In this document: one piece after another, positions 293 through 6,883 of the stretch | How positions within the stretch are numbered: position 1 is the first letter of the stretch | How the letters are laid out: every line of letters starts with the position of its first letter | IMG/VR virus record: IMGVR_UViG_3300010354_000514 | Coordinates: 1-26,948 of that record | Reading direction: 5' to 3' (one strand) | DNA length: 26,948 nt | Source: a virus | Made by a program: the position numbers and the translations under genes | Notes under the pieces: model-generated | Database searches by the model: none | Seen by the model: the letters and a program-made list of their open reading frames with translations, nothing else | What the model was told of the DNA's origin: nothing

Positions 293-642
293 CATATATA
301 TTCTTATTTCTTATTTTAAGCGGTTGTAAGGCAAAGAAGTTTCAAAAAATAGAAACAATAACCCAAGAGGTTTTTATTGACACAGGAAGCGTTAAAACAA
401 TAACCAGGACTGAATATGTACATTATTACGACACAATTACTAAAATGCTTTACGTTTACCCAAAATTCAAGGTTGAAAACAAAGAGGAAAAAAAAGGAAT
501 AACACAAGAAAAGAAAGAAGAAAAAAAAGAAACTAAACGCGAAGTTGAGCATAAAGCTGTAAATAACTTAAAACTAATATTTTGGCTTATTTTTGCATTA
601 ATTGTGTCAATTTTTATAAATATTTGGAAGTTTATTAAATAG
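280..642 (+). CDS. Putative unimolecular spanin (lipoprotein with C-terminal membrane anchor)
   Basis: The 120-residue protein has a short basic start (MRR), a hydrophobic signal segment and a lipobox LSGC with the lipidated cysteine at residue 16. A periplasmic stretch follows that is strongly charged with Glu and Lys at about residues 66-92. A hydrophobic helix spans about residues 97-117 and the protein ends in basic KFIK, consistent with a cytoplasmic C-terminus. One chain tethered to the outer membrane by lipid and to the inner membrane by a C-terminal helix is the layout of u-spanins such as phage T1 gp11, which fuse the membranes at the last lysis step. Holin and endolysin genes lie near the other end of the window, so it would be linked to them only if the genome is circular. 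Function is inferred from architecture; a different phage lipoprotein is possible. Confidence 0.65.
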   Translation: MRRITYIFLFLILSGCKAKKFQKIETITQEVFIDTGSVKTITRTEYVHYYDTITKMLYVYPKFKVENKEEKKGITQEKKEEKKETKREVEHKAVNNLKLIFWLIFALIVSIFINIWKFIK

Positions 643-654
643 TTGTTACTTTTG
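623..654 (+). promoter_or_regulatory. Bacteroidota-type promoter (TTTG-N20-TACTTTTG)
   Basis: TTTG at 623-626 is followed after 20 bases by TACTTTTG at 647-654, a good match to TTTG-N19/20-TAnnTTTG. It overlaps the end of the spanin-like gene and points into the gene-free stretch. Transcription would begin at about 657-662, just before the structured leader. Confidence 0.6.
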
Positions 655-657
655 CTT

Positions 658-757
658 TACGATTTCCGAAAATAATGTGAGAGGTTAATTTCGGGAACGG
701 TTCAAGAATAAACCCTTTTACCCGACCCTTGCAACTCTCACTTGTAGGGGTTTTTTT
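658..757 (+). ncRNA. Short structured leader or small RNA ending in an intrinsic terminator
   Basis: From the promoter at 623-654 the transcript would be about 95-100 nt with no credible reading frame. It can form a nested fold: GTGAGAG (677-683) with CTCTCAC (735-741), inside it TCGGG (691-695) with CCCGA (721-725), and inside that GGTT (699-702) with AACC (711-714). The CTCTCAC strand is exactly the loop of the terminator hairpin 725-751, so the outer pairing is either a pseudoknot with the terminator loop or an alternative to it. That is the architecture of an attenuator or a compact phage small RNA. No known family is recognised. Confidence 0.4.
725..757 (+). terminator. Intrinsic terminator after the spanin-like operon and leader
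   Basis: ACCCTTGCAA (725-734) pairs over ten positions, including G-U pairs, with TTGTAGGGGT (742-751) around the loop CTCTCAC. Seven T residues follow at 751-757. It would end transcripts from the spanin-like operon and from the promoter at 623-654. Confidence 0.75.
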
Positions 758-774
758 ATGCCTTTATATTTTTG
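742..774 (+). promoter_or_regulatory. Possible promoter for the 775-1010 RNA
   Basis: TATTTTTG at 767-774 matches the TAnnTTTG box. A TTG lies at 742-744 with a rather long 22-base spacer, inside the terminator hairpin. It sits directly before the first strong stem of the downstream structured region. The match is reasonable, but T-rich DNA here makes chance hits likely. Confidence 0.35.
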
Positions 775-1010
775 GTGCAGATAGTTAGCTTTAAGCATAA
801 GCCTACTGACTTATTTAAGTGGACAGGGTGAGGCTAACGCCATCTGTACTACCAGTATGTAGAGTATGCTTTTAAATCTTGTGTATGGGCTGTCAAACAC
901 CTTCCCTGCAAGAGCCGAAACGTTCCGATTCCTATTTGACGAGTTATTTGAGTAAGTGAATAGTGTTTATATCCTTTAGGGGTAGGGGTATAAACACCTT
1001 TTGCTTACCT
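775..1010 (+). ncRNA. Candidate structured noncoding RNA with a possible pseudoknot
   Basis: About 235 bases without a credible gene, less AT-rich than the surroundings and full of complementary segments in order. GTGCAGAT (775-782) pairs with ATCTGTAC (842-849), and GTTAGC (784-789) with GCTAAC (833-838), enclosing a small hairpin at 806-826. AAGCATA (793-799) in the enclosed loop is perfectly complementary to TATGCTT (865-871) outside the stem, a pseudoknot candidate. GTCAAA (892-897) pairs with TTTGAC (935-940). GTAAG (952-956) with CTTAC (1004-1008) encloses the nine-pair GTGTTTATA (963-971) with TATAAACAC (989-997). I see no tRNA, tmRNA or hammerhead core. A replication origin or packaging site could also explain clustered dyads. 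Confidence 0.42.
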
Positions 1011-1037
1011 ACATACCTTAAACCTTTTTCGGAGTTA

Positions 1038-1097
1038 TTTAGAATCATTATAAATTACAAATAATACTTGACAAAAGTAAAAAGCGTTGTATATTTG
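1038..1097 (+). promoter_or_regulatory. Early-type promoter 1 with upstream dyad
   Basis: The dyad TTTAGAATCATTATAAA at 1038-1054 (one mismatch) is followed after 13 bases by TTG at 1068-1070 and after 19 more by TATATTTG at 1090-1097. The same elements with the same spacings occur at 2531-2590 and 5921-5980. It would drive the genes from 1117 to about 2546, with a leader of about 15-20 bases that ends in an A-rich stretch and ACAATT before the ATG. Confidence 0.78.
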
Positions 1098-1694: not shown

Positions 1695-2162
1695 ATGGAT
1701 AGCAAATTTAAAAAATTGAATTTTACCAATGATTATTTAATTTCAGAGGATGGTGAGATTTATAGCAAAAAAACTAATAAAGTTTTAAGAAAATTAAATG
1801 ATTTTTATGGTTACCATATAATAACATTAAGAGTAAATAATAAATCTAAATGTTTTAAATTGCATAGGTTAGTAGCATTAACATTTGTACCAAATCCTGA
1901 AAATAAACCTCAAGTAAATCACAAAAACGGGATTAAAACTGATAATAGAATAGAAAATTTAGAATGGTGCAATAATTCTGAAAATCAAAAACACGCTTAT
2001 TATATGCAATTAAAAAAATCTATTAAAGTTACAAATACAATTACAAATGTAACATATTATAGTATTAAAGAAGCATCTAAACATAGTATTTATTGTTATA
2101 GTCATTTTAGAGATATGTTAATTGGTAGAAGAAAAAATAAAACAAATTTTAAATTAGCATAA
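1695..2162 (+). CDS. HNH homing endonuclease with NUMOD4-like N-terminus
   Basis: A 155-residue free-standing endonuclease. Residues about 10-50 (NDYLISEDGEIYS, then LNDFYGYHIITLRVN) match a NUMOD4-type DNA-binding module. The HNH_3-type core follows with H57 (KLHRLVA), H76 in QVNHKNG and NRIENLEW with N84 and N93. The C-terminal SIKEASKHS segment resembles a NUMOD1 helix-turn-helix. Such enzymes cut a specific site and spread by copying themselves into cut genomes. The gene sits between operon genes, overlapping the next start by one base, and is not inside an intron that I can detect. Its target is unknown. Confidence 0.9.
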   Translation: MDSKFKKLNFTNDYLISEDGEIYSKKTNKVLRKLNDFYGYHIITLRVNNKSKCFKLHRLVALTFVPNPENKPQVNHKNGIKTDNRIENLEWCNNSENQKHAYYMQLKKSIKVTNTITNVTYYSIKEASKHSIYCYSHFRDMLIGRRKNKTNFKLA

Positions 2163-4593: not shown

Positions 4594-4723
4594 ACAAAAA
4601 AAAATATACGAAGACTACTTAAAAGGATTTCAAATAAAAAATTTAATGTATATACATAATTTAAGCAGTTATACAATAAGTAAAATAATTTCAAAAGGTT
4701 TAAAAAAAGAATATGATAATTGA
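4568..4723 (+). CDS. Small helix-turn-helix protein, 51 aa
   Basis: The frame begins MNSKVPIDKQKKIYEDYLKG and ends KKEYDN. YLKGFQIKNLMYIHNLSS followed by YTISKIISKGL has the layout of a resolvase/Hin-type helix-turn-helix: a first helix, a turn around MYIHNLS, then a recognition helix. It overlaps both neighbours by 11-26 bases. It is a candidate small phage regulator for one of the dyads described here, by fold pattern only. Confidence 0.6.
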   Translation: MNSKVPIDKQKKIYEDYLKGFQIKNLMYIHNLSSYTISKIISKGLKKEYDN

Positions 4724-4907
4724 CGCAAACAAATATTTATCAGTAAATGAGTTTATGCTACTCTATAACTACAACTCACGTCAAAGAGCGTGGCAGGTTA
4801 TAAAACAGCATAAAATACCAACAAAAGATTTTAAAGGTTTGACCTTAATTCCAATAGAATGCATACCATATCAAATAATCAAACGCAGTGGTTCGGATGC
4901 GGAATAG
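4713..4907 (+). CDS. Small putative DNA-binding protein, 64 aa
   Basis: It begins MIIDANKYLSVNEFMLLYNY and contains NSRQRAWQVIKQHKIPTKDF, a helix-turn-helix-like region of the excisionase/MerR type in which YLSVNEF starts the first helix. There is no membrane segment. It overlaps the preceding small HTH gene by 11 bases and the following gene by 49. DNA binding is an inference from the pattern; it could equally be an accessory replication protein. Confidence 0.55.
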   Translation: MIIDANKYLSVNEFMLLYNYNSRQRAWQVIKQHKIPTKDFKGLTLIPIECIPYQIIKRSGSDAE

Positions 4908-5176
4908 CACCCGAAAACGAAGAAATATGGCAGGAACTATTAAAGATGCCTAAATGGAGGAAAAAACCAAAAACAGCCATAGAATTAAGTATAAAAAAAT
5001 TATCTATTTTTGAACCAGCATTCCAAAGGGAATTAATCGAAAGAGCAATAGCAGGAAATTATCAGGGAGTTGTTTTTTCAAACACCATAAAGGAATACCA
5101 AAATTATAAGAAAAATGTCGGAGTTAGTAAAATTTCAAGGCTCGAACGAATTATCGGCAGTAATTCAATCGGATAA
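4859..5176 (+). CDS. hypothetical protein, possible replication accessory factor
   Basis: The 105-residue protein begins MHTISNNQTQWFGCGIAPEN. Its middle (KTAIELSIKKLS, then FQRELIERAIAGNYQGVVF) resembles the C-terminal part of phage replisome organisers, where similar helices follow a winged-helix domain. That N-terminal domain is absent here, so it may be a split or reduced form working with the neighbouring small HTH proteins. It overlaps the previous gene by 49 bases and the next by 62, unusually large overlaps for this window. Function is uncertain. Confidence 0.55.
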   Translation: MHTISNNQTQWFGCGIAPENEEIWQELLKMPKWRKKPKTAIELSIKKLSIFEPAFQRELIERAIAGNYQGVVFSNTIKEYQNYKKNVGVSKISRLERIIGSNSIG

Positions 5177-5756
5177 GTTAACTATTTACCAAGCGTACAA
5201 AGCAAAACCGCAGGTAGTAACTACTTTTTTGACTGCTTTTATGATAGAGTTTTGTTCTATTTACAAAATAGACGATAATAAAAGCCTTTCAGATGACGAA
5301 ATAAAAGAATGCGTACAAATACTTATAAATGATTATAAGTTTCTTAAAAAGGATGATTTTTTAGTATTTCAGCGCAGAGCAAAAAGAGGTTTATATGGTA
5401 ATTTATTTGGATACTTTGATATGCCTACATTTTTTCAGATGTTAGAAAGTTATTGCCAAAGCCGAGTGGAAGAAGCTACAAAGATTAATAAGGTTAAAGT
5501 AGCTGAATTAAATAGAGAGCCTATTTCAGAAAAAACACAAAAGCTAATAAAGGAAACCATTGAAAAACTAAAACCCAAAAAAGTAATTCAAGAAAGCAAT
5601 TATAAACAAACAGAAGAAGAAAAACTACATTCTGAATGGCATAGAGAGTTCTATAAACTTTCAAACGGTAGGCAATTTTTAGAAATTGAAGGCAAAAAAA
5701 TGAATGTAAATGAGTACATCAATCATAAATTTATATCTAATCAAGCTCAAAGTTAA
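5115..5756 (+). CDS. hypothetical protein, probable replication-associated, 213 aa
   Basis: It begins MSELVKFQGSNELSAVIQSD. Conserved-looking features are a helical core with SLSDDEIKECVQILIND, then FLVFQRRAKRGLYGNLFGYF followed by a helix ending in YCQSRVEEA, and a charged coiled region with KLKPKK. I recall this kind of protein from Bacteroidota phage replication modules, where its biochemical role is undefined; it could be a helicase loader or initiator-like factor. It has no Walker or polymerase motif. The start overlaps the preceding gene by 62 bases; the next methionine in frame is at about residue 43, so the given start is preferred. Confidence 0.65.
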   Translation: MSELVKFQGSNELSAVIQSDKLTIYQAYKAKPQVVTTFLTAFMIEFCSIYKIDDNKSLSDDEIKECVQILINDYKFLKKDDFLVFQRRAKRGLYGNLFGYFDMPTFFQMLESYCQSRVEEATKINKVKVAELNREPISEKTQKLIKETIEKLKPKKVIQESNYKQTEEEKLHSEWHREFYKLSNGRQFLEIEGKKMNVNEYINHKFISNQAQS

Positions 5757-5925
5757 CGGGTTTAAAACAGCTTGTTCAATAGTAGGCAAAGAACCCTTTA
5801 ACGTGAAAGACTACGAAATGAGAATTAAAGCGTCTTATTATCAGGGTAGGAAAAATATCCGAGAAAGAGATAAATTTGAGGTTATAGGCTTTGAAATTAT
5901 AAAAGCTAATATAGGACTTATTTAG
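5710..5925 (+). CDS. hypothetical protein, 71 aa
   Basis: The only early start is the ATG at 5710, inside the previous gene; the next ATG is about 36 codons in. The protein begins MSTSIINLYLIKLKVNGFKT and ends with IGFEIIKANIGLI-like hydrophobic residues. Its end lies just short of early promoter 3 (the dyad begins at 5921 and overlaps the last codons). No domain is recognised. The large overlap makes the exact start uncertain. Confidence 0.5.
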   Translation: MSTSIINLYLIKLKVNGFKTACSIVGKEPFNVKDYEMRIKASYYQGRKNIRERDKFEVIGFEIIKANIGLI

Positions 5926-5980
5926 AATTATTCTAAATTGCAAATAAGTATTGACAAGTGTAAATAAATACCTAAATTTG
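5921..5980 (+). promoter_or_regulatory. Early-type promoter 3 with perfect upstream dyad
   Basis: TTTAGAATTATTCTAAA at 5921-5937 is a perfect inverted repeat with 7-base arms and a 3-base centre. After 13 bases comes TTG (5951-5953), then 19 bases, then TAAATTTG (5973-5980). This is the best copy of the three early sites. It would drive 6009-7132. Confidence 0.8.
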
Positions 5981-6008: not shown

Positions 6009-6290
6009 ATGAAAAAAGTAATTGTAAGAGCCAATGGCGCAGGTGTATTTTTTGGCGAATTAAAAGAAAAAAATGGTACAGAAGTTACAATGTGTAATGT
6101 GCGTAAATTATTTTATTGGGATGGTGCAGCAGCTATCGAGCAGTTGGCAGTAGATGGTACATCAAATCCTGATGGTTGCAAGTTTACAATTATTGTCGAT
6201 GAGATGACAATTACCAATGTATTACAAATTATTCCTTGCACAGAGAAAGCTATTAAATCACTTACAAGCGTAAAAGTATGGAAAAGATAG
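6009..6290 (+). CDS. Phage protein of unknown function (DUF6948-like), 93 aa
   Basis: It begins MKKVIVRANGAGVFFGELKE and contains LFYWDGAAAIEQLAVDG and IIPCTEKAIKSL near the end. This sequence of motifs (VIVR..AGVFFGEL, a W.GA..L.QLA centre, IIPCTEKA) matches a small family widespread in phages that I recall as DUF6948; its function is unknown. It is the first gene after early promoter 3 and overlaps the repeat-protein gene by 13 bases. Confidence 0.7.
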   Translation: MKKVIVRANGAGVFFGELKEKNGTEVTMCNVRKLFYWDGAAAIEQLAVDGTSNPDGCKFTIIVDEMTITNVLQIIPCTEKAIKSLTSVKVWKR

Positions 6291-6883
6291 ATAGATTTTT
6301 AGCAATAAGCGATGGCTCTGGCGATGGCTCTGGCTCTGGCTATGGCGATGGCTCTGGCTATGGCTATGGCTCTGGCGATGGCTATGGCGATGGCTCTGGC
6401 TCTGGCTATGGCGATGGCTCTGGCTCTGGCTATGGCTTATTAACCTACAATTGCCAAAAAGTATATAAAATTGATGGTATTGAAACTATTGTGACTTTTA
6501 TTAAAGGAAATGTAGCAAAAGGTTTTATAGTTAATGGTGATTTAACTTTAACTGATACTTATATAGTTAAAATAGGTAATTACTTTGCTCACGGTAAAAC
6601 TATTCGAGAAGCTCAAAGAGATGCGGAAAACAAGCATTTTGACAATATTGATGTAGATGAAAAGATTAAGTTATTTAAAGAGGTTTACCCAGATAATAAC
6701 GCTAAAATAAAAGCCATTGAGTTATTTAATTGGCACGCTAAACTAACTGGCAGCTGTGAGCAAGGTAGATTATCTTTTTGTAAAGATAGAGCAATTGATA
6801 TTAATACAGATAGTTTTACTATTGAAGAATTTAAAACTTTAGTAAATGGACAATATGGTAGTGATATTATAAATAAATTATGA
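6278..6883 (+). CDS. Repeat protein: Gly-Ser/Asp/Tyr tract plus DUF7666-like domain
   Basis: After MEKIDRFLAIS, residues 12-53 are 21 uninterrupted dipeptides, each Ser, Asp or Tyr followed by Gly. The rest is a globular domain starting YNCQKVYKIDGIETIVTFIK and including GNVAKGFIVNGDLTLTDTYI and YFAHGKTIREAQ, which I recall as DUF7666, a phage and Bacteroidota domain of unknown function. A second helical part follows, with INTDSFTIEEFKTLV near the end. The repeat is encoded by nearly pure GGC-NNT hexanucleotides, so its length can probably change by slippage. Role unknown. Confidence 0.75.
   Translation: MEKIDRFLAISDGSGDGSGSGYGDGSGYGYGSGDGYGDGSGSGYGDGSGSGYGLLTYNCQKVYKIDGIETIVTFIKGNVAKGFIVNGDLTLTDTYIVKIGNYFAHGKTIREAQRDAENKHFDNIDVDEKIKLFKEVYPDNNAKIKAIELFNWHAKLTGSCEQGRLSFCKDRAIDINTDSFTIEEFKTLVNGQYGSDIINKL
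6311..6436 (+). repeat. Hexanucleotide repeat tract encoding (S/D/Y)G dipeptides
   Basis: Twenty-one consecutive six-base units of the form TCT, GAT or TAT followed by GGC. Every glycine codon is GGC except where the tract ends, so the DNA is far more uniform than the protein requires. The tract has a higher G+C content than the surrounding DNA and lies inside the 6278-6883 gene. Confidence 0.95.

What the first reader, a model, noticed from the sequence alone, without database searches (positions are those of the whole stretch)
775..1010. Roughly 235-base structured RNA candidate with pseudoknot between an early operon and the spanin-like gene
Seen: four sets of complementary segments in order, including an 8-pair stem 775-782/842-849, 6-pair 784-789/833-838, 6-pair 892-897/935-940 and 9-pair 963-971/989-997, plus AAGCATA (793-799) complementary to TATGCTT (865-871) across the first stem. 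Promoter-like TATTTTTG lies right before it. No reading frame of note. In a densely packed phage genome, 235 free bases with this much structure is unusual. Inferred: a phage noncoding RNA (regulatory or structural) not belonging to a family I recognise; alternatively a replication origin or packaging site.
Basis: partly seen in the sequence, partly recalled or inferred. Interest (0 to 1): 0.78.

Follow-up and report, generated by a model that had tools for sequence, protein, structure and literature searches.

The report
Phage RNA carrying its own address
The stretch is part of a previously undescribed structured RNA gene carried by some viruses of Bacteroidota bacteria; it has a leader with two interlocking, fast-changing RNA loops and a body with a short internal copy of the DNA just downstream of it, which hints at an RNA that recognises its own position in the viral genome.

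Summary
The region encodes a real, conserved structured RNA absent from Rfam 15. The unit runs from about 660 to at least 1034: a Bacteroidota-type promoter (623-654), a ~105-nt leader of two hairpins whose loops pair with each other, ending in a U-run (663-757), then a ~250-nt body (784-1034). I found it in 26 other IMG/VR contigs (groups A, B, C), at several sites and in both orientations. It is optional: a close relative lacks it, and in one phage group 49 of 78 genomes have an empty site. The leader loops change completely yet stay complementary (0 of 50,000 permutations). The body shows compensatory changes and GNRA/UAAC loop swaps. A segment after 'GAG' in the body copies the 3' flank and tracks it between phages (mean match 6.2 nt against 0.8; 2 of 3.6 million permutations). 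Best reading: an accessory trans-acting phage RNA, gated by a kissing-loop attenuator and recognising its own site. The RNA is well supported; the mechanism is inferred. Of five claimed pairings only 963-971/989-997 holds family-wide.

The parts
623..654 (+). Promoter of the Bacteroidota type: upstream TTTG 623-626, spacer 20, TACTTTTG 647-654
   Evidence: TAnnTTTG box in 23 of the 25 members examined (TTACTTTG in L199/L200); TTG/TTTG 18-21 nt upstream in 22 of 25; 101-110 nt from box to U-run in all. Activity not tested.
663..697 (+). Leader hairpin 1 (663-671/689-697 and 673-676/684-687) with loop GUGAGAG 677-683
   Evidence: Folding; loop covaries with the loop at 735-741 in all members
724..757 (+). 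Terminator-like hairpin 724-734/742-752 with loop CUCUCAC 735-741, U-run 751-757
   Evidence: Terminator scan; loop complementary to 677-683; present at constant distance from the promoter in all members. Termination or regulated read-through not tested.
767..774 (+).
   Evidence: Present in the window and L164, absent in L004, L165, L168 and L174 types
784..1034 (+). Body of the RNA (RNA2)
   Evidence: Conserved in 26 further IMG/VR contigs
809..820 (+). Hairpin ACUU/AAGU 809-812/817-820
   Evidence: 100% of cells paired, one-sided changes only in the count
832..841 (+). Hairpin GGC-UAAC-GCC; loop is UAAC, GAAA or GUGA in homologues
   Evidence: Alignment; stem itself invariant
849..862 (+). 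Hairpin CUAC-CAGUAU-GUAG 849-852/859-862
   Evidence: Two pairs with compensatory changes, CG/AU and CG/GC
887..916 (+). GGGCUG..AAACACCUUCCC..AGCC hairpin, stem 888-891/913-916
   Evidence: Invariant in groups A and B, so no covariation information; weaker in group C
941..949 (+). Copy 1: GAG + TTATTT, internal segment equal to the 3' flank
   Evidence: Tracks the flank across members
952..1008 (+). 3' stem-loop: outer stem GUAAG/CUUAC 952-956/1004-1008, inner stem 963-971/989-997, G-rich loop
   Evidence: Inner stem with changes on both sides and further changes in group B; outer stem invariant but for one GU
1032..1040 (+). Copy 2: GAG end of the conserved part + flank TTATTT
   Evidence: Flank TTATTTAG is present in relatives lacking this RNA
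1035..1056 (.). Palindrome-like operator candidate TTATTTAGAATCATTATAAATT in front of the early promoter (TTG 1068-1070, TATATTTG 1090-1097)
   Evidence: Similar copies several times per related phage genome

Best explanation
An accessory phage noncoding-RNA gene. From its own Bacteroidota-type promoter it makes a ~105-nt leader of two hairpins whose loops kiss, ending in a U-run; by read-through of that hairpin (or by processing) it makes a ~370-nt RNA whose body folds into several conserved helices. The body acts in trans, whatever its orientation to the phage genes. Its 3' part holds a 6-11-nt segment identical to the DNA just beyond the element. I infer that this segment lets the RNA, presumably with a protein encoded elsewhere, recognise the minus strand of its own 3' junction or an equivalent site, and so serves movement between, or persistence at, phage cargo sites. 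Shown: promoter pattern, conserved RNA structure, kissing loops, optional and relocated cassette, tracking of the flank. Inferred: transcription, attenuation, trans action, RNA-DNA recognition, mobility.
For: Conserved promoter and leader spacing. Kissing loops: mean 6.9 nt within members, 4.25 between, 0 of 50,000 permutations, and again in L078, which was found without using the leader. Body helices: 17 double-changed cells against 5.7 in shuffles, 99.7% paired. Tetraloop swaps. Inverted in L004, antisense between other genes in group B, replaced in L003, 49 of 78 sites empty. Copy 1 tracks the flank: 6.2 against 0.80 nt, 0 of 20,000 permutations; 2 of 3,628,800 on ten representatives. The two copies change together at orthologous sites (L165 against L188; L201 against L203). 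No complementary partner for the copies found in the 5' part of the body.
Against: No transcript data. No protein partner is linked to it. The match is short, only 2-3 nt from the first base in L163, L164, L199, L200 and L202, and within a single sequence not longer than in shuffles. One copy per phage record, not the many copies typical of transposons. No clean pair of filled and empty site with exact boundaries was resolved. Members are not phylogenetically independent, so permutation counts overstate significance somewhat.
Confidence: 0.42

Rival explanations
1. A plain accessory regulatory, superinfection-exclusion or counter-defence RNA that binds a host or phage RNA or protein. Copy 1 and copy 2 both bind the same external partner, and no DNA recognition or mobility is involved.
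For: Accessory distribution in cargo sites that also hold small ORFs; own promoter; both copies co-vary.
Against: In the window copy 2 is sequence that relatives have without this RNA, so the RNA follows the flank and not the reverse; the flanks have nothing else in common.
Confidence: 0.3
2. A scaffold-type RNA like GOLLD and ROOL: an RNA particle held together by kissing loops between molecules, the leader loops serving homo-oligomerisation.
For: Phage setting, large size, kissing loops conserved by complementarity; one member lies next to a phage-type tmRNA; GOLLD and ROOL are phage RNAs near tRNA genes with quaternary kissing loops (PMC12286853).
Against: Half the length of those RNAs, no Rfam match, a U-run between the kissing part and the body, and the flank-tracking segment has no counterpart that I know of.
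Confidence: 0.12
3. A replication pre-primer like ColE1 RNA II: the kissing domain controls it, the G-rich loop and the 3' part hybridise to DNA at the flank and prime replication.
For: Hypervariable complementary loops, G-rich loop and a segment matching downstream DNA; ColE1 comparison is from memory.
Against: Most relatives lack it and have no replacement (49 of 78 empty), so it cannot be an essential origin.
Confidence: 0.06
4. A cis DNA element (origin, packaging site, operator or attachment site) or a chance arrangement, not an RNA.
For: Intergenic position, inverted and direct repeats; adjacent operator-like repeat.
Against: GNRA/UAAC loop swaps, G-U compensations and kissing-loop covariation act at RNA level; conserved promoter and no conserved frame; site and orientation not fixed.
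Confidence: 0.04

Closest known systems
GOLLD and ROOL RNAs (large ornate phage RNAs, PMC12286853)
   Same: Phage-borne, noncoding, large, of unknown function, built with kissing loops, sometimes beside tRNA-like genes
   Different: No sequence or Rfam match; ~370 nt rather than 580-800; kissing module is a leader ending in a U-run; flank-tracking segment
HOLDH RNA (RF02997)
   Same: Not this RNA itself; a different cargo RNA at the group-B site matches the HOLDH 5' hairpin (E 0.0023, far below gathering) and has a kissing leader and an 11-nt repeat around its 3' hairpin
   Different: No HOLDH match in the window or in the RNA2 bodies tested
IS110-family bridge RNA / seekRNA and TnpB/IscB omega RNAs (from memory)
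   Same: A structured RNA with a short guide that matches the DNA flanking its own insertion
   Different: No transposase or nuclease linked; guide is internal and a direct copy of the 3' flank; kissing leader; no match to the Rfam models of HEARO or RAGATH-18
ColE1 RNA I/RNA II and P4 CI-type immunity RNAs (from memory)
   Same: Hypervariable loops kept complementary, linked to control of transcript fate
   Different: Both loops are in one transcript and match each other in cis; no antisense promoter identified

Membership tests
Any Rfam 15 family (incl. GOLLD, ROOL, raiA, HEARO, 6S, tmRNA, group I/II introns) | Covariance-model score at or above the family gathering score | tested here: not met
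   Window 0 hits; 600-1120 only chance-level hits at E up to 10; nine related contigs only a separate tmRNA in L166
tmRNA | tRNA-like domain and tag reading frame | tested here: not met
   ARAGORN finds none in the window or in nine member contigs
GOLLD/ROOL | RNA-only oligomeric cage with intermolecular kissing loops | not testable with these tools
   Needs native gels or cryo-EM; sequence membership not met
HOLDH | Score above 319.4 bits over 391 positions | tested here: not met
   No hit in the L078 record or the window; only a partial 22.6-bit hit in a different cargo RNA
IS110 bridge RNA / omega RNA (RNA-guided mobile elements) | Guide that matches the DNA at the insertion site | tested here: inconclusive
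   Internal 6-11-nt copy of the 3' flank tracks it; no matching left-side guide was identified
IS110 bridge RNA / omega RNA (RNA-guided mobile elements) | Linked transposase or RNA-guided nuclease | tested here: not met
   No protein cluster is shared by all members within 4 kb. A trans-acting enzyme is not excluded.
Transcription attenuator | Hairpin with U-run upstream of the product | tested here: met
   Terminator-like hairpin 724-757, present in all members with a leader
Transcription attenuator | Termination that changes with an alternative pairing or signal | not testable with these tools
   Needs in vitro transcription; kissing loops conserved by complementarity

The most novel reading that the evidence does not exclude
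An RNA-only mobile cassette of phages: a noncoding RNA that carries an internal address matching its own genomic junction and moves between phage cargo sites with enzymes supplied in trans, its dose set by a self-kissing attenuator with allele-specific loops. The same leader type heads unrelated large RNAs and small ORFs in the same sites, so this would be a general platform for RNA cargo in phages.
Probability: 0.22. Interest if true: 0.93.

Novelty: new variant of a known kind. Interest (0 to 1): 0.74.

Why it matters
If right, tailed phages of Bacteroidota carry optional RNA genes as cargo in the way they carry accessory protein genes. The hypervariable but always self-complementary leader loops are a natural mutant series for loop-loop control of termination. 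The internal segment that follows the genomic flank makes RNA-guided placement of an element without any protein gene a directly testable idea.

Tried and rejected
(2) The box at 767-774 as the main start: not conserved. (3) Coding: stop-free frames differ between members. (4) A pairing switch between the two copies and the 5' part of the body: no more complementary within members than between them. (5) tmRNA, HOLDH, GOLLD, ROOL or any Rfam family: no match. (6) Members in cellular genomes: the motif scan of 84,980 genomes gave 18 hits; the three that I read (the Bacteroidota-like ones) are unrelated sequence; a model search of 395 genomes of the phylum of one Sphingobacteriaceae bin found none, while the same search finds the members in phage records. 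(7) Named phages and plasmids: no homologue by blastn. (8) A further motif scan, AAACAYCTTTTNCTTACC, gave no new member. (9) Literature searches found no description of this RNA. (10) Repeats inside single RNAs are not longer than in shuffles, so the repeat claim rests on covariation between phages. (11) A linked protein partner: none common to all members.

Full report
SETTING. The window is a virus record of 26,948 bases. Among named phages its terminase is closest to Flavobacterium phage 11b and Cellulophaga phage phi10:1, so the host is taken to be in Bacteroidota. Relative L003, 89-97% identical over most of the genome, has its contig opened at another point, so the window is close to a whole genome. 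The stretch lies between a 120-aa lipoprotein with a C-terminal membrane segment (280-642, spanin-like by eye, no Pfam or PHROG hit) and the early operon (small ORF 1117-1224, winged-helix protein 1227-1424, later an ERF recombinase).

CHECK OF THE OBSERVATION. The complementary segments exist, but folding energy alone is weak evidence (z -1.72; 12 of 200 shuffles as good). Rfam gives nothing at gathering score and only chance-level hits below it. Against 12 homologues only the stem 963-971/989-997 holds throughout.

A FAMILY. Blastn against phage relatives found one homologue, 80% identical, in L004, on the opposite strand relative to the neighbouring genes. IMG/VR scans with separate motifs from the body gave 24 further contigs (read). 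A covariance model of the 3' part found a much more diverged one, L078 (40.7 bits, E 0.0003 in 1.3 Mb). That makes 26 contigs besides the window, some of them near-identical. Group A: L004 (= L163), L162, L164-L170, L174, L175, L180, L188, L189, L196, L198. Group B: L199-L207, antisense between a 90-aa gene and a capsid-like gene of another phage lineage. Group C: L078. L078 was found without the leader and without the repeat, yet reading it shows both: promoter TATCTTTG, kissing loops GGGGAU/AUCCCC, and the copies CATCGGTATGAAT/TATCGGTATAAAT.

ANATOMY. (i) A promoter of the TAnnTTTG type with TTG/TTTG 18-21 nt upstream in most members; this consensus is discussed for Flavobacterium in PMC6847099 and PMC2483708 (not read in full). 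(ii) A leader of constant length, 101-110 nt from box to U-run. The loop of its first hairpin and the loop of the terminator-like hairpin are complementary in every case although the letters differ: GUGAGAG/CUCUCAC in the window, then GGCACA/UGUGCC, GUCGCAG/CUGCGAC, AGUCGCAU/AUGCGACU, UGUAGGG/CCCUACA, UCCGAACA/UGUUCGGA, CGACACA/UGUGUCG, CGAGCGG/CCGCUCG, CGGGCGG/CCGCCCG and others. Mean 6.9 nt within members against 4.25 between them, 0 of 50,000 permutations (the set includes two leader modules of the same type in front of other cargo, L003 and L011). (iii) A body whose hairpins 849-862 and 963-997 have compensatory changes; 17 double-changed cells against 5.7 in shuffles and 99.7% of cells paired. 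The hairpin at 832-841 swaps UAAC, GAAA and GUGA loops. Compensations such as GC to GU are pairs only on the + strand. The 3' stem changes further in group B (for example GUUUCUAA/UUAGAAAC and GUGUUUACAA/UUGUAAACAC); the automatic count on the joint alignment is weakened by three misaligned rows.

THE INTERNAL COPY. After a conserved ...GAG (941-943) comes a variable segment that equals the sequence following the conserved 3' end ...GAG (1032-1034): window TTATTT, L165 TATTAG, L168 TTAAATAAAAA, L174 CTAATAATT, L175 CTAATA, L188 CATTAA, L201 AATGTTTTG, L203 GATACTT; weak in L163, L164, L199, L200 and L202. Over 17 distinct pairs the mean run of identity from the first base is 6.2 nt against 0.80 for mismatched pairs; 0 of 20,000 permutations, and 2 of 3,628,800 on ten representatives. 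Members are related, so these are not strict probabilities. In the window the flank is the start of an operator-like repeat that related phages without this RNA also have, so the RNA follows the flank. At orthologous sites both copies change together (L165 against L188, L174 against L175, L201 against L203), so the match seems to be kept and not only left over from insertion. A test for a complementary partner of the copies in the 5' part of the body was negative. Within one sequence such repeats are not longer than chance.

OPTIONAL CARGO. L003 has another cassette at the same site: a kissing leader (GUAGACAG/CUGUCUAC), a 102-aa ORF and ~300 nt of other noncoding sequence. At the group-B site, of 78 complete intergenic intervals 49 are empty (186-263 nt), 7 hold this RNA and 22 hold other cargo; contigs are partly redundant. 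Other cargo includes a different large RNA in front of a GIY-YIG endonuclease (Pfam E 9e-10), with a HOLDH-like 5' end, and a third large RNA on the other strand; both have leaders of the kissing type by eye. The leader type is thus shared by several unrelated cargoes. Members occur once per phage record.

MECHANISM. Shown: promoter pattern, conserved RNA structure, kissing loops, optional and relocated cassette, flank tracking. Inferred: the U-run hairpin of the leader terminates part of the transcripts and loop kissing modulates read-through into the body; the body works in trans; the internal copy recognises DNA at the 3' junction, where it could pair with the minus strand. I favour a site-recognising accessory RNA, possibly mobile with enzymes supplied in trans, over a plain regulatory or counter-defence RNA. 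I put the RNA gene itself at about 0.93 and the site-recognition step at about 0.4; the confidence given is for the whole statement.

NOVELTY. No Rfam family; no homologue in INPHARED or PLSDB by blastn; no member seen in cellular genomes within the limits of the searches; nothing found in the open papers searched. As a kind, large structured phage RNAs of unknown function are known (GOLLD, ROOL; PMC12286853). The allele-specific kissing leader and the flank-tracking segment are the new features, hence 'new variant of a known kind'.

Noticed in passing
L241 (minus strand, about 4640-5130), L239, L242-L244: A different ~330-nt structured RNA with a kissing leader in front of a GIY-YIG endonuclease ORF; its 5' hairpin matches HOLDH (E 0.0023, below gathering) and Betaproteobacteria-1, and AAAAGCTATAC occurs before and after its 3' hairpin, 90 nt apart. 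A similar 34-nt stretch lies between genes of Vibrio phage D81.
   Followed up: partly
L255, L312, L315, L238, L290, L245, L310, L283, intergenic before the capsid gene: A third large noncoding RNA candidate (~450 nt) with a kissing leader (GGGGG/CCCCC type), on the strand opposite to the group-B RNA.
   Followed up: no
L003 6755-7520 and L011 about 5110-5210: Leader modules of the same kissing type (GUAGACAG/CUGUCUAC; GUCGUAAG/CUUACGAC) in front of small ORFs, in L003 followed by another ~300-nt noncoding stretch.
   Followed up: partly
L005, L006, L007, L008, L011, L170, downstream of the spanin-like gene: A repeated ~230-nt noncoding block (CCCGACAAGGAAGCGTTCTTTATACCC ... GGGGGACA ... TCCCCCATTAAA), looks structured.
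   Followed up: no
L166 465-758: Diverged phage-borne tmRNA (48.4 bits, gathering 47) directly upstream of the leader of this RNA; ARAGORN does not call it.
   Followed up: no
window 1035-1056 and about 5914-5943: Operator-like palindrome TTATTTAGAATNATTCTAAATT in front of TTG-N19-TATATTTG promoters, several copies per related genome.
   Followed up: partly
window 1695-2162: NUMOD4/HNH endonuclease gene inserted between two genes that are adjacent in L003 and L004.
   Followed up: no
window 6278-6883: Protein with a repetitive N-terminal GDGSGSGYGDGSGYGYG stretch, no family match.
   Followed up: no
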